Part shown: piece by piece, positions 1 through 26,850 of the stretch
Layout: every line of letters starts with the position of its first letter
How positions within the stretch are numbered: position 1 is the stretch's first letter
Source of the DNA: Paenibacillus sp. MMS20-IR301
Lineage (GTDB): Bacteria > Bacillota > Bacilli > Paenibacillales > Paenibacillaceae
Direction: 5' to 3'
NCBI RefSeq assembly: GCF_032302195.1
Contig: NZ_CP135275.1
Coordinates: 1,364,001 to 1,428,000, forward strand
Length of the DNA: 64,000 nt
Translations under genes and position numbers: made by a program
The notes under the pieces: generated by a model
What the model saw: the letters and a program-made list of their open reading frames with translations, nothing else
The model's database searches: none
Told to the model about the DNA's origin: nothing

Positions 1-218
1 AGGTTCAAGTGTTTGAAGCGGAGAAAATGGCCCGTGTAATCGTGCCTGACTATCAACTGTCGCTCGCGATCGGCATTAAAGGGCAGAATGCCCGTCTTGC
101 CGCTAAGCTGACCGGCTGGAAAATTGATATCAAGAGCGAGACTCAAGCGGAGCAGGAGTACGGCAGACCCAAAACTTTGAGTGATGAAATGCATCAGGAT
201 TCCGTCTCCATCGATTAA
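1..218 (+). CDS. nusA: Transcription termination/antitermination factor NusA, C-terminal part (5' end outside window)
   Basis: Only the last ~72 codons are present, in the frame that starts at base 3. They encode a KH domain with the GxxG loop GIKGQN, inside a stretch reading [12 protein letters not shown], which is typical of the second KH domain of NusA. NusA binds RNA polymerase and nascent RNA and modulates pausing and termination. The protein ends in an acidic tail (QDSVSID), as in Gram-positive NusA, which lacks the long C-terminal acidic repeats of proteobacteria. It lies 30 bp upstream of ylxR, as in the conserved rimP-nusA-ylxR-ylxQ-infB order. Confidence 0.95.
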
Positions 219-248
219 TGAATCTGCTGACTGACGGGAGGCGCTACG

Positions 249-557
249 ATGAAACAACGGAAGGTGCCGCTGCGTAAATGCGTTGCCAGCCAAGAGATGA
301 TGCCCAAGAAAGAGCTGATTCGCGTGGTGAGAACGCCTGAAGGCGAAGTGCTCATTGACCTGACAGGCAAAAAGTCAGGCCGTGGCGCTTATATTTGCGG
401 CAAACTGGAATACTTCAAGCTGGCACAAAAGACCAAAGCACTTGACCGCGCATTGAAATGTCAGGTGAGTCCTGAAATCTATGCCCAGCTTGCCCGGGAT
501 TTCGTATCTGTGGAGGACGAGTTTTTGGCAGCGAAGGATAGTGAGGACAATGAGTAA
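249..557 (+). CDS. ylxR: YlxR/RnpM family RNA-binding protein
   Basis: A 102-residue basic protein. The conserved family motif RKCVASQE sits near residue 10 and GRGAYIC near residue 47; together they build the RNA-binding surface of the YlxR fold. In B. subtilis this protein (RnpM) binds the RNase P RNA and modulates its activity (family knowledge). The start follows a GGGAGG site 8 bp upstream. The last codons overlap the ylxQ start by 8 bp, so translation is probably coupled. The tail after residue ~85 is acidic and poorly conserved. Confidence 0.93.
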   Translation: MKQRKVPLRKCVASQEMMPKKELIRVVRTPEGEVLIDLTGKKSGRGAYICGKLEYFKLAQKTKALDRALKCQVSPEIYAQLARDFVSVEDEFLAAKDSEDNE

Positions 558-873
558 GACACTTTCTTATTTAGGGCTTGCGATGAGAGCAGGCAAGATT
601 GTCACCGGTGATGAGGCTGTGCTTAAGGCAGTACGGTCTTCAGAGGCGAAGCTGGTCGTCCTGGCAGGTGACGCTTCAGATAATACCCAGAAGAAGTTCC
701 GCGATAAATGCGGGACCTACGATATTCCACTAGTAATCGCATTTCACCGGGATGAGCTCGGTGCAAGTATTGGTAAAGACCAGCGCGTTGTGCTGGCCGT
801 TACGGATAAAGGATTCGCGGAAATGATCTCCAGAACGCTTGGAGATACTGTCGGAGGTGGAGTTATTGACTAA
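550..873 (+). CDS. ylxQ: L7Ae-family ribosomal protein-like YlxQ
   Basis: A 107-residue L7Ae/L30e/S12e/Gadd45-fold protein. The motif [16 protein letters not shown] at residues ~8-23 is the RNA-binding element of the family, which recognises kink-turn RNA. I chose the ATG inside the end of ylxR because the homologous region begins there ([11 protein letters not shown]); the frame stays open farther upstream but that part resembles nothing. It overlaps ylxR by 8 bp and infB by 8 bp. Its exact cellular role is not established. Confidence 0.92.
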
Positions 874-3559
874 AGAAGACAATAAGGATAAGCTGCGCGT
901 ATACGAATATGCAAAGTCTCTGAACATGAGCAGTAAAGAAATTATTACAATTCTGAAGCGTTTGGATGTCCCTGTGAATAATCATATGAGTGTCATGGAG
1001 AATGGCTCCGTGAACAAAGTTGAGCAGTTCTTCAAGGATATCAAGTCAAATGCTGCAGCCAAGCGGGATGCCGGCACCAGCAGCCGTCCGGTCACTACCG
1101 GAGCGGTAAAAGCTGAACCCCAGAGTGCTCAGAATGCCAACAAAAATCAACCGGAAAAGCAGGTAGGTATGAACAGTAACCAAAACAACAACCAATCGAC
1201 GACGTCCCCAAGGCCCCAAAGCGGACAAGATTCCCGCAGAACACAATCAACAGGCAACACCCAGAATTCACGTCCGCAAGGCAGCTCTACCGGCGGCAAC
1301 CGTCCGCAGGGCAGCTCCAGCGGCAGCCGTCCGCAAGGCTCCACCGGCAGCAACCGTCCGCAAGGCAGTTCCACTGGCGGCAGCCGTCCGCAGGGCAGCT
1401 CCACCGGCGGCAACCGTCCGCAGGGCAGCTCCACTGGCGGCAGCCGTCCGCAAGGCAGCTCCACCGGCGGCAGCCGTCCGCAGGGCAGCTCAAGCGGCAA
1501 CCGTCCGCAAGGCAGCTCCACTGGCGGCAGCCGTCCGCAGGGCAGCTCCACTGGCAGCCGTCCGCAAGGACAAGGCGCACCGCGTACCGGCGACCGTCCG
1601 CAGGGACAAGGCAATGCAGGCGGAGATTTCTCGCGCGGCGGAGACAGAGGTCCTAAGAAGAACGCTACTGGCGGCAGACCGAACAACAACGGCAACCAGA
1701 AGCGTTTTGAAGACGGCAAAGGCGGCAATGGCAATTTCCGCGGCCGTGGCGGCAAGAATAACCGCGGCAGGAACCAGCCGGTTGTATACCGTGAGAAGAT
1801 CGACAACACACCGAAGAAAATAATTGTCCGCGGCAGCATGACTGTCGGTGAGACAGCGAAACTGCTGCATAAGGATGCATCCGAAGTAATCAAGAAGCTG
1901 ATCTCGATGGGCGTTATGGCCACAATCAATCAGGAGCTTGATATCGATACAATTCTGCTGCTTTCCGGCGAGTTCGGTGTTGAAGTAGAAGTGAAGATTC
2001 CTGTGGATGAAGACAGCTTCGAAACCGTGGAAGAAAATGATTCCGAAGATGATCTGCAGACCCGTCCTCCGGTTGTAACCATCATGGGACACGTTGACCA
2101 TGGTAAAACAACCTTGCTCGATGCTATCCGTTCCACGAATGTTACAGGCGGCGAAGCGGGCGGGATTACACAGCATATCGGTGCTTATCAGGTGGAAATC
2201 AACCATAAGAAGATTACCTTCCTGGATACACCTGGACACGAAGCGTTCACTGCTATGCGTGCCCGTGGCGCCCAGGTAACGGATATGACGATTATCGTTG
2301 TAGCTGCTGATGACGGCGTAATGCCGCAGACTGTGGAAGCAATCAACCATGCCAAAGCAGCCGGACTTCCGATCATTGTTGCTGTTAACAAGATCGATAA
2401 GCCGGGTGCAGATCCGGACAGAGTGAAGCAGGAGCTCACAAGCTATGAGCTGGTTCCGGAAGAATGGGGCGGCGATACGATCTTCGTCAACCTGTCAGCC
2501 AAGCAGCGCATCAACCTGGAAGAGCTGCTGGAAATGATTCTGCTGGTTGCAGAAGTGAATGAGTACAAAGCGAACCCGGACAAACGGGCACGCGGTACTG
2601 TAATAGAAGCTGAGCTTGACAAAAACCGTGGACCGGTAGCCCGTATTCTTGTACAGAACGGTATGCTGAAGGTCGGAGACGCCTTCGTGGCAGGGAACTG
2701 CTTCGGACGTGTCCGCGCTATGGTTAATGACAAGGGACGCAAAATCAAGGAAGCAGGACCTTCCACACCGGTGGAAATTACCGGTTTGACAGAGGTGCCG
2801 CAGGCCGGCGATCCGTTCATGGCCTTTGAAGATGAGCGCAAGGCACGTGCTATCGCTGACAGACGTTCTACTACGCAGCGCCAGTCCGAGCTGAATACGA
2901 ACACCCGCGTAACGCTGGATGATCTGTTCAAGCACATCAAAGACGGCGAGATCAAGGATCTCAATGTAATCATTAAAGCTGACGTACAGGGTTCGGTTGA
3001 GGCGCTGAAAGGCTCCCTGGCCAAAATCGAAGTCGAAGGCGTGCGCGTGAAGATTATTCACAGCGGTGCCGGCGCGATTACAGAATCCGATATTACGCTG
3101 GCGGCAGCATCCAATGCTATTGTGATCGGCTTCAACGTTCGTCCGGATGCCCAGACGAAAGCAGCAGCTGAGCAGGAGAAAGTGGATGTACGCCTGCACA
3201 ACATTATCTACAATGTAATTGAAGAAATCGAAAGTGCTATGAAGGGGATGCTTGATCCCATCTACAAGGAGAACGTTATCGGCCATGCCGAAGTGCGCAA
3301 CGTATTCAAAATCAGCAAAGTGGGTAGTGTCGCAGGCTGTATGGTTACAGACGGCAAAATTACCCGTAATGCTGAAATGCGCCTGATCCGCAGCGGTATC
3401 GTTGTCTTCACAGGCAAGATCGACACCTTGAAACGTTTCAAAGATGATGCAAAAGAAGTGGCGCAGGGTTATGAATGCGGCATAACTTTGGAACGCTATA
3501 ATGACCTCGTTGAGGGGGACATTATTGAAGCGTTCATCATGGAAACGGTAGAGCGCTAA
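866..3559 (+). CDS. infB: Translation initiation factor IF-2
   Basis: IF-2 is the GTPase that delivers initiator fMet-tRNA to the 30S subunit and promotes subunit joining. The product is ~897 residues. An IF2_N domain lies at ~8-60 ([14 protein letters not shown]), then a long Gly/Ser/Arg/Pro/Gln-rich linker, a second IF2_N-type domain at ~310-365, the G domain with GHVDHGKTT (~407), DTPGHEAF (~453) and NKID (~507), then domains II, III and the fMet-tRNA-binding C domain. The TTG at 866 is preferred because GGAGGTGG ends 5 bp before it; an in-frame TTG at 839 lies upstream of that site. It is longer than B. subtilis IF-2 (716 residues), mainly because of the repetitive linker. Confidence 0.96.
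1271..1570 (+). repeat. Tandem ~30-bp repeat coding [10 protein letters not shown] units in IF-2 linker
   Basis: About ten near-identical 27-33 bp units encode variants of RPQGSSTGG(S/N). DNA identity between units is very high (CGTCCGCARGGCAGCTCCAC recurs), so the array probably expands and contracts by slippage or unequal recombination. It lies in the disordered linker between the two IF2_N domains. Confidence 0.9.
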
Positions 3560-3577
3560 GCGAAGAGGTGAAATTAA

Positions 3578-3925
3578 ATGTCTAAAATCAGAGCCGGACG
3601 GGTTGGCGAACAGATCAAGAAAGAGCTGAGCCAGCTTATCCAGAGTGGTCTTAAGGACCCGCGTGTAGGGTTTGTAACAGTTACTGGCGTAGATGTGACG
3701 AACGATTTGTCGCAGGCCAAGGTATACCTGAGCGTATTCGGGGACGGAGAGCAGCAGGCAGGCTCGCTCAAGGCGATTGAGAAAGCGAACGGCTTTCTCC
3801 GCTCAGAGCTTGGCAAAGCAATCCGCCTGCGCCATACGCCTGAGCTGATCTTCAAGATTGATGAATCCGTAGCTTACGGAAGTCATATCGAGAAGCTGCT
3901 CGGCGAAATCGGCAAAAACGAATAG
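3578..3925 (+). CDS. rbfA: 30S ribosome-binding factor A
   Basis: A 115-residue KH-type protein needed for late 16S rRNA 5' end maturation and for cold adaptation. The RbfA signatures seen are RVGEQIKKELSQLIQ near the N-terminus, LKDPRVGFVTVTGVDVT at ~23-39, and the C-terminal LRHTPELIFKIDESV with the Ala-linked interhelical turn. Length and boundaries match the family. It starts 18 bp after infB behind AGAGGTG and continues the same operon. Confidence 0.95.
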   Translation: MSKIRAGRVGEQIKKELSQLIQSGLKDPRVGFVTVTGVDVTNDLSQAKVYLSVFGDGEQQAGSLKAIEKANGFLRSELGKAIRLRHTPELIFKIDESVAYGSHIEKLLGEIGKNE

Positions 3926-3952
3926 TGCTACGGGACATAAAGGAGACGGCGA

Positions 3953-4930
3953 ATGCAGAGCTATGAACAAAGTCTCCAGCAGACCCGTAAGTTTCTGCTG
4001 GAACACGACGATTATCTTGTAGTGTCGCATGTTCAGCCGGACGGAGATGCAGTCAGCTCCACCCTCGCGGTGGGCTGGCTTCTCTCATGTCTGGGCAAGA
4101 AATACACTATGGTGAATGAAGGGCCAATACCTAGCCGTATGGAATATTTATGGCAGTCGGGTGAGATCATTAATCTGACCGCCGAGGCACTGACCCGCCA
4201 GTACAGTCATGTCATCTGTGTCGACTGTGCTGATTTTCAGCGGGTGGGGCGCACACAGCAGCATTTTGCCAGTGATGCGCTGATCTTGAATATTGACCAT
4301 CATCCAACCAACAACGGTTACGGTGCTGTGCAGCTGATCAAGCCGGATGCGGCAGCAACTGCAGAAATCCTGTTTGACCTGCTGAAGACCTTCGGGGTGC
4401 AGTGGGATATTGATATTGCTACAGCGATCTACACCGGTTTGCTTACGGATACAGGCGGGTTCCGCTATAACAATACCTCAGCTAAAGTAATGGCAGCAGT
4501 CTCTGAGCTGCTTGCACTAGGCGTTAACGGACCGGAGCTGGCTGAAACGCTGCTTGAAGAAATGACCCTTGCCCAGGTTAAAGTTTTAAACCGTGCACTT
4601 ACTACACTGCAGATGAGTCCTGAAGGAGATATTGCCTGGGTACATGTTACCCCCCAGGATATGCTGGAGTGTGGAGCGGCGAACGAAGATCTTGAAGGGA
4701 TTGTCAATTATCCGCGTAACATCCGCGGGGTAGAAGTAGGCATTCTGTTCAAGGTAATCGATGAGCAGGCAGTCAAGGCCAGCCTGCGTTCAGCAGGTAA
4801 AGTCGATGTAGCTGCGCTGGCGCAGGTATTCGGCGGCGGCGGACATACCCGTGCTGCGGGGGCCAGGATTAACGGCACTCTCGAAGAAGCGGTTGCGCAG
4901 GTGCTTGAGGAGGTTAAGCGTCATTTATGA
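3953..4930 (+). CDS. nrnA: DHH-family nanoRNase / pAp phosphatase NrnA
   Basis: A 325-residue DHH/DHHA1 phosphoesterase that degrades 2-5 nt RNAs and dephosphorylates pAp (family knowledge). Metal-binding motifs are visible: HVQPDGDAVSS (~24), VDCAD (~84), the DHH signature in NIDHHPTN (~105), and LTDTGGFRY (~165). The DHHA1 substrate motif GGGGHTRAAGA lies near the C-terminus (~290). The start follows AAGGAGACG. Its end overlaps the truB start by 4 bp (ATGA), so the two are translationally coupled. Confidence 0.94.
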   Translation: MQSYEQSLQQTRKFLLEHDDYLVVSHVQPDGDAVSSTLAVGWLLSCLGKKYTMVNEGPIPSRMEYLWQSGEIINLTAEALTRQYSHVICVDCADFQRVGRTQQHFASDALILNIDHHPTNNGYGAVQLIKPDAAATAEILFDLLKTFGVQWDIDIATAIYTGLLTDTGGFRYNNTSAKVMAAVSELLALGVNGPELAETLLEEMTLAQVKVLNRALTTLQMSPEGDIAWVHVTPQDMLECGAANEDLEGIVNYPRNIRGVEVGILFKVIDEQAVKASLRSAGKVDVAALAQVFGGGGHTRAAGARINGTLEEAVAQVLEEVKRHL

Positions 4931-5847
4931 GTGAGCTGACAGGTGTTCTGGCCGTATATAAGCCGGCCGGGTTCACTTCACATGATGTTGTAGCGAAGGC
5001 ACGCCGGATTCTTGGCATGAAGCGGATTGGACATACCGGCACACTTGATCCGCAAGTGACCGGAGTGCTGCCGCTGTGTCTGGGACGGGCTACGCGGGTG
5101 GTTGAATACATCCAGGAGCTGCCTAAGGAATATGTCGCGACGCTCCGGCTTGGTCTTGCCAGCGATACAGAAGATTTAACCGGGACAATTACGGAGTCAG
5201 TAGAAGAGGTCCATGTCACTGAAGCAGAAGTGCTCGCTGTGCTGGACTCATTCAAAGGCGTAATTTCACAGGTTCCTCCAATGTACTCGGCAGTTAAGGT
5301 CGATGGCAAGCGCCTGTATGAGCTGGCCAGAGAAGGCAAGACTGTAGAACGCAAGAGCCGTGAAGTAGAAATATATGAGATTGAAATGCTTGGCATGGTC
5401 CACAGCGGGAATTACCCCGATATTAAGTTCCGTGCCCTGTGCTCCAAAGGTACTTATATCCGTACTTTGTGCGTGGATATCGGCCGTGCGCTGGGAGTTC
5501 CGGCTGTCATGGTCCAGCTGGAACGGACGATGTCAGCCGGAATATCGGCCAGCCATTGCCTAACCCTGGAACAGATTGCTGAGCACAGCCAGGCCGGTAC
5601 GCTTGAAGCGCACCTGATTGCTACTGATGAAGCGATTGCGCATCTGCCGAAGCATGTCGTTGTGGATGAGAAGAAGAAGTCAGCGCTGCAGGGACAACGC
5701 CTGTCCAGCCGGTTTGTGGCACCAGAAGTGAAGCGAAGCGGAGATTTCCGGCTGTATGATCAGCGAGGGGAGTTCCTGGGCATTTATGCCCTGGAGTCTT
5801 CCGGTGCAATCGCTCCTGTTAAGGTGTTCGCACAGGCGCAGTCGTAA
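4927..5847 (+). CDS. truB: tRNA pseudouridine-55 synthase TruB
   Basis: A 306-residue enzyme that makes pseudouridine 55 in the tRNA T-loop. The start VLAVYKPAGFTSHDVV is the classic TruB N-terminus. The catalytic Asp is D41 in GHTGTLDPQVTGVLPL. The later motifs VPPMYSAVKVDGKRLYELAR (~117) and GTYIRTLCVDIGRALG (~177) are also conserved, and a C-terminal PUA-like region follows. The ATG overlaps nrnA. The next gene, ribF, follows after 45 bp, an order shared with B. subtilis. Confidence 0.96.
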   Translation: MSELTGVLAVYKPAGFTSHDVVAKARRILGMKRIGHTGTLDPQVTGVLPLCLGRATRVVEYIQELPKEYVATLRLGLASDTEDLTGTITESVEEVHVTEAEVLAVLDSFKGVISQVPPMYSAVKVDGKRLYELAREGKTVERKSREVEIYEIEMLGMVHSGNYPDIKFRALCSKGTYIRTLCVDIGRALGVPAVMVQLERTMSAGISASHCLTLEQIAEHSQAGTLEAHLIATDEAIAHLPKHVVVDEKKKSALQGQRLSSRFVAPEVKRSGDFRLYDQRGEFLGIYALESSGAIAPVKVFAQAQS

Positions 5848-5892
5848 ACTTGGATTTGGATTTCTATATTTGAATTGTAGGTGAGAAGCAGC

Positions 5893-6840
5893 GTGAGAAC
5901 CGTAACCTTAAGCTATCCTATGTCGCCGGAGACTGCGGCACAATTGGCACAGCCTCAAGTTGTCGCCCTGGGACAGTTCGATGGACTGCACCGTGGACAT
6001 GCCAGCGTCATTACCAAGGCTGTAGCTCTGGCCCGGCAGGCCGGAGTGCCGGCGGCTGTCATGACCTTTCATCCCCATCCGAAGGATGTTATGGGTAAAG
6101 GTGATTATGAGGGCTATTTGACACCGAAGCGAGACAAGCAGGAACTGCTTGCCGGGATGGGTGTTGAACTTTTATATACAATTGAATTCAATGAAGAGCT
6201 CTCCCGGGTCAGCCCGGAAGACTTTGTTTCGGTGATGCTGCTGCCGCTCCAGATGGTAACCGCCGTGGTCGGCTTCGACTTCCGCTTCGGCTACAAGGGT
6301 GAAGGGGATGCGGACAGGCTCAGAGAGCTGGGGCAGGGCAATATGAATGTGGAGGCAGTCGCTCCGTTTCTGCTGGAAGGCGAGAAGGTCAGCAGCTCAG
6401 GAATCCGCAAGAGCCTGCTGAACGGGGAACTGGAGAAGGCCAACGCCTGGTTTGGCCGCTGTTATCACCTGCGCGGAACCGTAGGCCATGGAGAGAAGCG
6501 GGGCCGGACCATCGGTTTCCCCACCGCCAATCTGCAGCTTGAAGACCGCTACGTCATTCCTGCCAAAGGCGTATACGCCGTCAAGGTAACTCATAATGAA
6601 CAAATGTTATACGGGGTCATGAATGTCGGCGTAAAACCAACGTTCCACGAAGGCGTCACAGCTCCGAGCTTCGAGGTGCACCTGTTTGATTTTGCCGGGG
6701 ATATTTATGGGCAGGAGCTTAAGGTAGAACTGGCAGCCTTCATCCGTTCCGAGCGCAAGTTCGAATCCATAGGGGCATTAATTGCCCAGATTGGTGCCGA
6801 TGCCGAGACAGCCAAAGTGCTGCTTGGCTATCCATCCTGA
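5893..6840 (+). CDS. ribF: Bifunctional riboflavin kinase / FAD synthetase
   Basis: Converts riboflavin to FMN and FMN to FAD. The N-terminal adenylyltransferase domain has GQFDGLHRGH (~27-36), the nucleotide-binding HxGH motif, and VVGFDFRFGYKGEGD (~117). The C-terminal flavokinase domain carries GRTIGFPTANL (~200) and YGVMNVGVKPTF. The GTG at 5893 is preferred because AGGTGAG lies 7 bp before it; another in-frame GTG at 5881 is inside that site. The protein is about 315 residues, a normal family length. Confidence 0.94.
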   Translation: MRTVTLSYPMSPETAAQLAQPQVVALGQFDGLHRGHASVITKAVALARQAGVPAAVMTFHPHPKDVMGKGDYEGYLTPKRDKQELLAGMGVELLYTIEFNEELSRVSPEDFVSVMLLPLQMVTAVVGFDFRFGYKGEGDADRLRELGQGNMNVEAVAPFLLEGEKVSSSGIRKSLLNGELEKANAWFGRCYHLRGTVGHGEKRGRTIGFPTANLQLEDRYVIPAKGVYAVKVTHNEQMLYGVMNVGVKPTFHEGVTAPSFEVHLFDFAGDIYGQELKVELAAFIRSERKFESIGALIAQIGADAETAKVLLGYPS

Positions 6841-24789: not shown

Positions 24790-25800
24790 TTATTCCACCC
24801 GCGGTGCGGCAAGCAGGCTGTCCACGATGTAATCAAGCTGGGCATTGAGCGAGTAAATATCACTGTAATAGGACAAGCCGAAATCAATCTCCATCAGCCG
24901 GCCGGCCTTGACAGCCGGGATGCTGGTCCAGAGCGGGTCACTAGTCAGATCAGCCATGCCGTCATAGGCAGAACGGAAGATATAATCCCCGCTGTAATCG
25001 GCCAGCACTTCGAACGATACGGTTTCACCGTCAGCGCCGGTAGCGGTATCGATCTTTTGCTGGACAAGCTCCGGGGCTTTCATCCCGAGATATTCATAAA
25101 TGACCTGGGAGCCGCGGCCGAATTGCTTGCTGGTGACAACAGCCATGCTGCGGTCTTTACCGCCTTCCATAATAGAGATTGTAGACCCGAGAATGCCGGC
25201 CTCCTGCAGCTTCTGTTTGCTTTCCTCCACCTTGGCATGGAAGCTGTCGAACAGGGAGGTGGCCTGGTCTTCTTTTCCTAATATCTGTCCGATAAAGCTG
25301 ACACGTTCCTCAGCGGTCATCTTCTCGTATGGAACGAGCACGGTTGGAGCGATATCATGCAATGCCTCGTAGGTCTCCTCGGAGGGGACAATAATCAGGT
25401 CCGGCTCCAGTGAAAGAACAACCTCAGGACTTGCTTCGAACCAGTTTCCCAGCTTCTGCACATCCTGCAGCTCTTGTTCGAAAGCGGCTCCCTCGGATAC
25501 GTCAGATACGCCGACAGGTTTGATGCCCAGAGCGAGAACATCCCCCAGAAGATAGAGTACAACCACCCGCTGCGGATCAGCCGGAACTTCAATTTCTCCT
25601 TTGACCGTTGAGATGGTCCGGGTCTGGGCTTCGGCGGATGCTTGATCCGGAGCTGTAGTTGCTGCGGCTGATGCAACGGGTGAATTGTTGCCGCTGCCGG
25701 AAGCAGCGTTGCCGGCTGTACCTGCGGAGCATGCGCTTAAAAGGATGGTGAAGCATAAGAGCAAGGTGAGAATTAGAGATGGTTTAGCTGTTCTGAACAT
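24790..25800 (-). CDS. Siderophore-binding lipoprotein part of a longer frame (ABC transporter substrate-binding protein)
   Basis: From the ATG at 25800 the product is 336 residues. It starts MFRTAKPSLILTLLLCFTILLSACSAG, a complete lipoprotein signal with lipobox LSAC, then a Ser/Ala/Thr linker and a TroA/FepB-like fold: VVVLYLLGDVLALGIKPVGV, SLEPDLIIVPS, ISIMEGGKDRSMAV. Such proteins bind ferric siderophores outside the membrane. AAAGGGG lies ~12 bp upstream and a perfect Fur box ~25 bp upstream. The same frame stays open upstream into the AraC regulator with no stop. No permease or ATPase gene is adjacent, so it would need a partner elsewhere. I favour this internal start for the exported protein. 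Confidence 0.75.
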   Translation of the reverse strand: MFRTAKPSLILTLLLCFTILLSACSAGTAGNAASGSGNNSPVASAAATTAPDQASAEAQTRTISTVKGEIEVPADPQRVVVLYLLGDVLALGIKPVGVSDVSEGAAFEQELQDVQKLGNWFEASPEVVLSLEPDLIIVPSEETYEALHDIAPTVLVPYEKMTAEERVSFIGQILGKEDQATSLFDSFHAKVEESKQKLQEAGILGSTISIMEGGKDRSMAVVTSKQFGRGSQVIYEYLGMKAPELVQQKIDTATGADGETVSFEVLADYSGDYIFRSAYDGMADLTSDPLWTSIPAVKAGRLMEIDFGLSYYSDIYSLNAQLDYIVDSLLAAPRVE

Positions 25801-26757
25801 GTCTGGCGCCCCTTTTAGGATATATTGATAATGATTATCATGATCAATATATCGGAGACCGCCGTCCCGGACAATGTCATAAGCAGACACGTCAGATGGC
25901 ATATCCGGCCATTTTCCTGCAGCAGGCAGAGAGTTTTTGTACCTTACCGGGGAGGTGCCGTAGAATTTCTTGAACATTTTACCAAAAGAATAGGCATCCG
26001 GATAGCCGACAGCGGCTGCGATCTCATGCAGGGCGGCTCCGGTATTCAGCAGCAGCCCGCGGGCTTTTTCCATCCGGATCCCGATCAGATATTGCGCCGG
26101 GCTGGTCTGAAGTCTGACCCGGAACAGTCTTGATAATGTTCTTGAGCTGGTGCCAAGTGTCTCAGCCAAAGTATCAAGCAGAAACGGCTTGTGATACTCA
26201 TCCTGCATATAACGTACAGCCTGCTCCAGCGGATCTGCCTTAAGGGGAAAGGCTGCCTGCTGTGCATGACGCTGCTGATGCAGCTCATGGACCCATTGAT
26301 AGAAAAGCGCCTTTGTATGCAAATGCTCAAGAACCCCGCCGCTCTGCCACTCGTTGTACATTTGGGCCAGCAGACCGTAAAGCGGCAGCGGGTGGGCAGG
26401 AATAAACTGGTAGGATTCAGCAAAAGGGCTGCTGCGCTCCAGAAGGGCTGCAAGATGCCTCCGCACCGGAAGAGTCATTGTAGCTCTGTACATAATTAAA
26501 TAGTATTCCAGGATTCCCTCTGTCCGGAGGACTTCAAGGGTCATGCCTTTACCGCCATGAAAGACACTTGACACACTTGCTTCAAAGGGAATTTCATCTA
26601 TAACTACACTGGCGGTACCGCGAATAACATACATATATGTACTTGCCGGCAGCCGGTACCGTAGCGGCAGATCTGCATAAGTAAACGAGGCCTGGCGGAT
26701 ATCAATAACTTCTATTAAAGCATGGTTCCACAGCACGATATGATCCTTCAGCTTCAT
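24790..26757 (-). CDS. AraC-family regulator, open in frame into the siderophore-binding protein
   Basis: The N-terminal ~275 residues are an AraC-type regulator: a cupin-like sensory half (ALIEVIDIRQASFTYADLP) and two helix-turn-helix motifs at ~190-275 (DTLAETLGTSSRTLSRLFR and EIAAAVGYPDAYSFGKMFKKFYG). No stop codon follows; a ~45-residue linker, encoded over a perfect Fur box, leads into a lipoprotein signal and a substrate-binding domain. Fusions of AraC to such domains exist (B. subtilis Btr/YbbB), but those lack a signal peptide in the middle. Either one 656-residue fusion is made, or the AraC stop was lost. ATG 26757 has AGGAG 12 bp before it; ATG 26784 is an alternative. A second Fur box precedes it. 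Confidence 0.7.
   Translation of the reverse strand: MKLKDHIVLWNHALIEVIDIRQASFTYADLPLRYRLPASTYMYVIRGTASVVIDEIPFEASVSSVFHGGKGMTLEVLRTEGILEYYLIMYRATMTLPVRRHLAALLERSSPFAESYQFIPAHPLPLYGLLAQMYNEWQSGGVLEHLHTKALFYQWVHELHQQRHAQQAAFPLKADPLEQAVRYMQDEYHKPFLLDTLAETLGTSSRTLSRLFRVRLQTSPAQYLIGIRMEKARGLLLNTGAALHEIAAAVGYPDAYSFGKMFKKFYGTSPVRYKNSLPAAGKWPDMPSDVSAYDIVRDGGLRYIDHDNHYQYILKGAPDMFRTAKPSLILTLLLCFTILLSACSAGTAGNAASGSGNNSPVASAAATTAPDQASAEAQTRTISTVKGEIEVPADPQRVVVLYLLGDVLALGIKPVGVSDVSEGAAFEQELQDVQKLGNWFEASPEVVLSLEPDLIIVPSEETYEALHDIAPTVLVPYEKMTAEERVSFIGQILGKEDQATSLFDSFHAKVEESKQKLQEAGILGSTISIMEGGKDRSMAVVTSKQFGRGSQVIYEYLGMKAPELVQQKIDTATGADGETVSFEVLADYSGDYIFRSAYDGMADLTSDPLWTSIPAVKAGRLMEIDFGLSYYSDIYSLNAQLDYIVDSLLAAPRVE
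25826..25840. promoter_or_regulatory. Perfect Fur box
   Basis: TGATAATGATTATCA matches the Bacillus 7-1-7 Fur consensus TGATAATnATTATCA at every defined base. It lies ~25 bp before the lipoprotein ATG (minus strand) and inside the open frame that joins it to the AraC part. Confidence 0.92.
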
Positions 26758-26798
26758 GTTAGCTCTCAACTCCTGTTGTTTCATATTTCAAGTATATT

Positions 26799-26813
26799 TG
26801 ATAATCGTTCTCA
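26799..26813. promoter_or_regulatory. Fur box upstream of the AraC regulator
   Basis: TGATAATCGTTCTCA differs from the Fur consensus at two bases. It lies ~40 bp before the AraC start on the minus strand, so the regulator gene is also likely iron-repressed. Confidence 0.7.
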
Positions 26814-26850
26814 GTTGCAACGAATTTACTGAGGTACGCACGCCGGTTAT

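What the first reader, a model, noticed from the sequence alone, without database searches (positions are those of the whole stretch)
24790..26784. AraC regulator and siderophore-binding lipoprotein share one stopless frame across a perfect Fur box
The frame runs ~660 codons without a stop. It holds a full AraC regulator, a linker, then a complete lipoprotein signal with lipobox LSAC and a substrate-binding domain. A perfect Fur box and a ribosome binding site lie inside the linker DNA. So one DNA stretch could make a cytoplasmic regulator-sensor fusion and, from an internal Fur-controlled promoter, an exported binding protein. Known Btr-type fusions have no signal peptide in the middle. Alternatively the AraC stop codon was lost recently.
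Basis: partly seen in the sequence, partly recalled or inferred. Interest (0 to 1): 0.72.

Follow-up and report, generated by a model that had tools for sequence, protein, structure and literature searches.

The report
Nested siderophore regulator and receptor gene
One bacterial gene appears to encode both a switch protein and, nested in the same reading frame with its own iron-controlled promoter, the surface protein that catches an iron carrier, and many relatives keep the same layout.

Summary
The 664-codon frame is stopless: AraC regulator, linker with a perfect Fur box and ribosome-binding site, internal ATG, lipoprotein signal (LSAC), FhuD-type siderophore-binding domain. Seven more loci in the same genome have this layout. 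In 154 non-redundant loci, the linker has no in-frame stop in 6526 codons, against 255 and 810 in the other frames. A search with the AraC part alone finds open frames of at least 600 aa in 139 of 145 hits. 'Stop lost recently' is rejected.

The linker is also regulatory DNA. Synonymous divergence halves over about 125 bp around the Fur box, and a direct repeat at exactly 22-bp spacing precedes the internal promoter (z 21.7), probably the regulator's own operator. Best reading: a two-product, self-inducing gene. An upstream promoter makes a regulator-receptor fusion, probably membrane-spanning; the fusion activates an internal Fur-gated promoter that makes the receptor alone. Signal-less, Btr-like relatives lie among the nested genes in the tree. 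No expression data were seen; sensing, activation and topology are inferred.

The parts
26791..26820 (-). upstream promoter P1: -35-like TTGCAA (26820), 18-nt spacer, -10-like TATACT (ends 26791)
   Evidence: consensus scan, (3 found, 2.6 expected in shuffles); aligned in orthologs
26800..26812 (-). upstream Fur-like box, between the two P1 hexamers
   Evidence: 2 mismatches on the - strand; in relatives a Fur box (<=3 of 14 mismatches) upstream of the regulator in 117 of 153 loci, against 0 of 154 control windows
25927..26784 (-). AraC-type regulator, N-terminal domain and HTH (residues 1-286; likely true start at 26757, residue 10)
   Evidence: Pfam HTH_18 206-284; AlphaFold2
25801..25926 (-). 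in-frame linker (residues 287-328) that holds the internal regulatory DNA
   Evidence: 0 in-frame stops in 154 loci; reduced synonymous divergence
25872..25903 (-). 22-bp-spaced direct repeat TATGCCATC / TATGACATTG, probable operator of the AraC part
   Evidence: binding not tested
25846..25874 (-). internal promoter P2: -35-like TTGTCC, 17-nt spacer, -10-like TATATT
   Evidence: 9 of 12 matches, not above shuffles by itself; conserved in 11 orthologs
25826..25840 (-). internal Fur box TGATAATCATTATCA
   Evidence: <=3 of 14 mismatches in 151 of 154 relatives, always in the same frame
25809..25816 (-). internal ribosome-binding site AAAAGGGG, 8 nt before the internal ATG
   Evidence: conserved G/A block 9-15 nt before the start
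24790..25800 (-). internal ORF: receptor lipoprotein, 336 aa, start ATG at 25800
   Evidence: internal Met329 invariant in 53 sequences
25729..25800 (-). signal peptide with lipobox LSAC (residues 329-351 and Cys352)
   Evidence: Cys352 invariant in 53 sequences; LSAC in 93 of 154; helix 335-351
24808..25629 (-). siderophore-binding domain (residues about 386-659), FhuD type

Best explanation
A two-product, self-inducing siderophore-receptor gene. (1) From the Fur-gated upstream promoter P1, iron starvation gives a few copies of the full-length protein; as the frame has no stop, completed translation of the AraC part always gives the AraC-linker-signal-SBP fusion (follows from the sequence). 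(2) The mid-protein signal most likely acts as a signal anchor, with the AraC part inside and the siderophore-binding domain outside: a membrane-spanning one-component receptor-regulator (inferred, about 50%). (3) With its ferric siderophore bound, the AraC part binds the 22-bp direct repeat in its own coding linker and activates the internal promoter P2 (the repeat is shown statistically; binding and activation are inferred). (4) P2 is also gated by the internal Fur box and, through its own RBS and ATG, gives many copies of the receptor lipoprotein alone, which would feed an importer shared with other receptors (short product supported by conservation; importer inferred). Each copy in a genome would be a separately inducible receptor whose sensor and receptor share one binding site by construction.
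For: Linker open in 154 of 154 loci, 0 stops in 6526 codons against 255 and 810, and 0 in 2317 codons before the promoter against 110 and 142; AraC-only query 139 of 145 in frames >=600 aa. Fur box in 151 of 154 against 4 of 914 control windows. Internal ATG in 147 of 154; M329 and C352 invariant in 53. Synonymous divergence 0.21-0.26 around and 0.07 in the Fur box against about 0.49 elsewhere. Direct repeat at lag 22 only (z 21.7), 81 of 151 loci against 5.4% of 898 coding windows. Upstream Fur box in 117 of 153. Positive net charge in the first 10 residues of the signal in 135 of 154, fitting N-in orientation. In L040 a signal-less fusion is followed by a separate receptor gene with Fur box and lag-22 repeat.
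Against: No expression, binding or topology data. Linker pN/pS is 0.64, so there is no clear sign of protein-level selection on the linker residues themselves. Only 15 of 40 cluster representatives pass the repeat threshold at lag 22 (lags 20, 21, 23, 24: 3, 6, 2, 0). The shuffle z-scores have coding outliers, up to 7.1 at lag 21 in an SBP control. L128 and L159 have RBS, start and signal but no Fur box. L181 is split in the linker. In L194 the separate receptor gene has a Fur box but no clear lag-22 repeat.
Confidence: 0.75

Rival explanations
1. The long form stays in the cytoplasm like Btr: the signal is not used when preceded by a folded AraC part, and the SBP domain senses siderophore already imported. 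The short form is the exported receptor.
For: Signal-less relatives lie within the nested clade and keep the full regulator-SBP frame, so a cytoplasmic mode seems workable.
Against: The long form contains an intact signal with positive n-region and hydrophobic core, which would be expected to engage the export machinery.
Confidence: 0.25
2. The long form is a precursor: it is inserted, lipidated and cut at the lipobox, giving a membrane-bound AraC piece and a receptor lipoprotein.
For: The lipobox Cys is invariant in 53 sequences and would be in the right place in the long form too.
Against: The short product alone would explain lipobox conservation; no processing data.
Confidence: 0.2
3. The stop codon between two genes was lost recently, or the single frame is a sequencing error.
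For: None found beyond the single frame.
Against: Same layout in seven further loci of the genome, 33 of 118 family genomes and Lysinibacillus at 43% identity.
Confidence: 0.01
4. The open frame is a by-product of conserved promoter DNA; only the receptor matters and the fusion has no role.
For: The linker is constrained at synonymous sites too, with pN/pS 0.64.
Against: The stretch before the promoter, of varied length and sequence, is also stop-free: 0 in 2317 codons against 110 and 142; the AraC part is kept and cannot be made unfused.
Confidence: 0.04

Closest known systems
Btr (YbbB) of Bacillus subtilis, activator of feuABC-ybbA
   Same: AraC regulator fused to a siderophore-binding domain in one protein (architecture recalled); target promoter under Fur and the regulator (passages of PMC6529636).
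   Different: Window scores 52.9 bits on the NCBIfam Btr model against a cut-off of 900 and matches only residues 139-283; it has a lipoprotein signal, Fur box, RBS and start in mid-frame, and its apparent operator lies in its own coding sequence.
FhuD/FhuD2-type ferric hydroxamate-binding lipoproteins
   Same: Sequence and fold of the SBP part (3hxp E 3.3e-34; Foldseek 3hxp TM 0.88 and 4b8y 0.83 by target length).
   Different: Made from a start inside a regulator gene and also as part of a fusion.
In-frame internal starts giving two forms of one protein (N-terminal proteoforms)
   Same: Two proteins, possibly of different location, from one frame (abstract of PMC11005335).
   Different: Here the internal start has its own promoter with Fur box and an operator-like repeat, probably controlled by the long form.
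Membrane-spanning one-component regulators of the ToxR/CadC kind (recalled)
   Same: DNA-binding part first, one membrane helix, sensor outside, if the topology inferred here is right.
   Different: AraC-type DNA-binding part, SBP sensor, lipobox after the helix; topology not tested.
AraC-type siderophore regulators PchR and YbtA (passages of PMC3672683)
   Same: AraC-type regulators that work with a siderophore.
   Different: Separate genes for regulator and receptor (recalled).

Membership tests
AraC/XylS regulators | AraC-type helix-turn-helix domain | tested here: met
   PF12833 79 bits (cut-off 33.6) and PF00165 45.6 bits (cut-off 26.6)
AraC/XylS regulators | binds direct repeats about two helical turns apart | tested here: inconclusive
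   direct repeat at lag 22; binding itself not testable here
Btr (NF049932 equivalog) | score over the curated cut-off along the whole protein | tested here: not met
   52.9 bits against 900; match limited to residues 139-283
Btr | no signal between regulator and SBP (recalled) | tested here: not met
   signal and lipobox at residues 329-352; also in 167 of 172 fused frames
Siderophore-binding Peripla_BP_2 lipoproteins | PF01497 domain | tested here: met
   78.4 bits, cut-off 27.5
Siderophore-binding Peripla_BP_2 lipoproteins | type II signal with lipobox at the start of the product | tested here: met
   for the short product from the internal ATG: LSAC 23 residues after the start; conserved
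Siderophore-binding Peripla_BP_2 lipoproteins | binds a ferric siderophore | not testable with these tools
   homology and fold to FhuD-type proteins only
Fur-regulated genes | Fur box at the promoter | tested here: met
   internal core perfect; 151 of 154 relatives; Fur binding not tested
Membrane-spanning one-component regulators | single membrane helix between DNA-binding part and outside sensor | tested here: inconclusive
   helix 335-351 predicted, hydrophobic; insertion of the long form not testable here

The most novel reading that the evidence does not exclude
A whole inducible circuit in one reading frame: a membrane-spanning AraC receptor-regulator whose own coding sequence carries its operator, its Fur-gated target promoter and the start of the receptor that it induces. 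Sensor and receptor specificity then cannot drift apart, and a genome can keep many such units as separately inducible traps for other microbes' siderophores. Cytoplasmic Btr-like regulators could have arisen from such genes by losing the signal.
Probability: 0.45. Interest if true: 0.87.

Novelty: new variant of a known kind. Interest (0 to 1): 0.77.

Why it matters
If right, naming these genes 'AraC family transcriptional regulator' or 'iron complex transport system substrate-binding protein' (names seen) misses half of each. The layout locks sensor and receptor specificity together, offers an explanation for receptor genes without a permease beside them in Paenibacillus, suggests where signal-less, Btr-like regulators could come from, and, in the transmembrane reading, gives an AraC-type regulator that senses outside the cell through a C-terminal binding protein. 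It is also a testable case of operator, promoter, Fur box and RBS written inside a conserved coding frame.

Tried and rejected
Recent stop loss or sequencing error: rejected. Membership in Btr: rejected. Frame kept only by promoter conservation: tested on the part of the linker before the promoter, 135 loci, 0 stops in 2317 codons against 110 and 142. Protein-level selection in the linker: not clear, pN/pS 0.64, because synonymous sites are constrained too. A permease beside each copy: not seen as a rule; I judged the neighbours of the seven paralogs (six stretches) by ORF beginnings only, without domain searches. The repeat in the upstream promoter: lag-22 z 7.7, but lag 16 gives 7.4, so unsure.

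Limits and script errors. Searches used 163 loci: the window, L011-L043 and L045-L173; L001-L010 (repeats) and L044 (weak AraC hit) were left out. By hand count these cover 135 of the 143 rows. The E <= 1e-75 cut favours in-frame pairs, hence; there only 20 candidates per genome were scored, and its 145 rows are the sum of its per-genome column. Six of the 145 were under 600 aa: L181 (split in the linker), L182 (decayed), L183, L171 and L016 (regulator-linker-signal in frame, SBP part broken), L184 (signal-less, 599 aa). Among the 139 others at least five are signal-less (L193, L194, L197, L198, L199), and L203 gave no SBP hit. In one search the script took a too-early ATG in L061, so its Fur box was scored absent although the translation shows DNHYQY; 151 of 154 is left as computed. 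The null is a single-base shuffle; coding controls reach |z| 7.1 at other lags, so 21.7 should be read against that. The internal-signal filter passed 117 of the 120 proteins held; the other three are N-terminally short, were searched in the wrong range, and show the signal by eye. 187 proteins passed and 120 were listed. The tree is a quick one: 39 of 88 inner branches open, long branches for L018-L020, L050_1 with 21% of columns; its three forced changes could include gains and losses, so the direction of change rests on the Fur-box remnants. Bacillus subtilis Btr is not in the tree.

Literature. Eight searches aimed at this layout or at Btr; three returned nothing; of the others I saw listings only (15 of 80 papers: 10 of 92). 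No title or abstract start described the layout. The library holds open-licence papers only; the original Btr paper is recalled, not seen. Searches were on transcription starts and internal starts. Seen of papers: PMC5670726 abstract and passages; PMC6529636, PMC3672683, PMC12020853 passages (the last only names a Btr paper in its references); PMC11005335 abstract and outline.

Full report
OBSERVATION. The frame at 26784-24790 (-) is 664 codons without a stop. It holds AraC-type HTH domains (HTH_18 206-284) and Peripla_BP_2 (414-634). Between them the minus strand reads TTGTCC-17-TATATT, then TGATAATCATTATCA, then AAAAGGGG, 8 nt, ATG and a lipoprotein signal ending in LSAC. The Fur core is the only perfect GATAATGATTATC in the window. 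A second Fur-like box lies in the upstream promoter. The likely start of the long product is 26757, giving 655 aa, as in the database (P0001).

NOT A ONE-OFF. The same genome has seven more loci with this anatomy at 33-39% identity (L011-L017); in one, L016, the SBP part is broken further on. Of 24 loci from named genomes, 21 hold the whole frame with a mid signal (Paenibacillus, Bacillus sp. FJAT-27264, two Lysinibacillus); the others are L040 (signal-less fusion plus separate receptor gene), L042 (fragment) and L044 (weak AraC hit). In the family, 33 of 118 genomes, 10 of 19 genera, have hits at E <= 1e-75. In the class, 34 of 299 genomes have hits at E <= 1e-60, some in four further families; among stretches fetched from these, nested genes are seen in f3, f19 and f22 and a signal-less one in f11. 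The 120 listed database relatives carry the internal signal, 117 by script and three by eye.

FRAME TEST. 163 loci gave 172 frames with both domains, 167 with mid signal and lipobox and 5 without. In 154 non-redundant linkers of 27-58 codons, in-frame stops are 0 in 6526 codons, against 255 and 810 in the other frames; loci without stops 154, 27 and 0. By cluster at 50% identity: 42, 4 and 0 of 42. Before the promoter: 0 in 2317 codons against 110 and 142 in 135 loci. As these loci were chosen by full-length score, the AraC part alone was used as a query: 139 of 145 hits lie in frames of at least 600 aa; of the six others only L181 is a plain split in the linker.

REGULATORY DNA IN THE FRAME. 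A Fur box with at most 3 of 14 mismatches is in 151 of 154 linkers, always in the same frame, against 4 of 914 control windows. The internal start is ATG in 147, TTG in 5, GTG in 2. M329 and C352 are invariant in 53 sequences. Over 53 independent pairs, synonymous divergence is about 0.49 in the AraC and SBP parts, but 0.21-0.26 from 24 codons before to 17 after the Fur box, and 0.07 in it: about 125 bp of constrained DNA. An upstream Fur box is present in 117 of 153 loci.

OPERATOR. Eleven orthologs show ATGCCATC-like and ATGACATT-like words 22 bp apart, the second next to -35. Of all lags from 9 to 35 in 151 loci only 22 stands out (z 21.7; next highest 2.7). At least 7 of 9 bases match at lag 22 in 81 of 151 loci, against 5.4% of 898 coding windows and 4.6% of shuffles. 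Two coding controls give -0.9 and -1.2 at lag 22, though one of them reaches 7.1 at lag 21. The words differ between clades, as expected if each regulator has its own site. Only 15 of 40 cluster representatives pass at lag 22, against 3, 6, 2 and 0 at lags 20, 21, 23 and 24, so in many single loci the site is unsure. In this genome the window's operator pattern has one perfect match, in its own linker.

RELATIVES WITHOUT THE SIGNAL. In a tree of 91 AraC domains, the 12 signal-less fusions need six changes of state, at least three of them forced by well-supported branches. One group (L193, L206, L207, L211) lies among nested genes and keeps a Fur-box remnant (2, 2, 4 and 2 mismatches); the lag-22 repeat is clear in L206 and L207, not in L193 and L211. 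L211 keeps a hydrophobic stretch with His where the lipobox Cys would be (read by eye). L040 has a signal-less fusion followed by a separate receptor gene with a Fur box (2 mismatches) and a lag-22 repeat (7 of 9); in L194 the separate receptor gene has a Fur box (2 mismatches) but only 5 of 9 at lag 22. This suggests that the two roles can separate; the direction is inferred.

STRUCTURE. AlphaFold2 (53 rows, mean pLDDT 80.9, pTM 0.46) shows the AraC part, a disordered linker, a helix at 335-351, a disordered stretch and the SBP domain; placing of domains is not reliable at this pTM. The SBP part matches FhuD-type proteins.

MECHANISM. Shown: a long frame that cannot give an unfused AraC part, and a nested start with its signals, both conserved. 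Supported: an internal promoter with a Fur box and an operator-like repeat. Inferred: siderophore sensing by the fusion, activation of P2, membrane topology, a shared importer. I put the two-product self-inducing gene at 0.75 and, within it, the membrane-spanning form at about 0.5.

COMPARISON. It works like Btr but is not a member by score or layout. Eight literature searches on this layout or on Btr showed no account of it in the listings seen (see Tried and rejected). I file it as a new variant of a known kind.

Noticed in passing
L211 (G235:C58), middle of the fused frame: A decayed signal: hydrophobic stretch ending LLLGAH where relatives have a lipobox Cys, with a Fur-box remnant before it; looks like a step from nested to signal-less type.
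   Followed up: partly
L040 (Paenibacillus sp. 598K) and L194 (G092): Signal-less fusion followed by a separate receptor lipoprotein gene with its own Fur box; lag-22 repeat before the receptor in L040, not clear in L194.
   Followed up: partly
L181 (G092:C10): A natural split in the linker: regulator and receptor frames part near the Fur box; draft genome, so error is possible.
   Followed up: no
L128, L159, L201: Nested type with RBS, start and signal but without a recognisable internal Fur box (L128, L159 by script; L201 by eye).
   Followed up: partly
upstream regions of the regulator starts, 153 loci: A lag-22 repeat signal (z 7.7) upstream of the regulator as well, but lag 16 is nearly as strong (7.4).
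   Followed up: partly
L038 and L039 (Lysinibacillus), 1-6000: Two receptor-like SBP frames and two nested fusions in a row.
   Followed up: no
L185:9134-10279 (own genome, after the L011 paralog): ORF beginning MILIIIIIIESKG, the look of a Fur box read in another frame, followed by permease-like and ATPase-like ORFs (judged by eye).
   Followed up: no
L187:13171-15098 (own genome, paralog L016): One of the eight copies in this genome has a broken SBP part while regulator, linker and signal stay in frame.
   Followed up: no
L191 (G000:C1:2408500-2415000): An adjacent but unfused AraC gene and SBP lipoprotein gene with a stop between them, a natural contrast in the same genome.
   Followed up: partly
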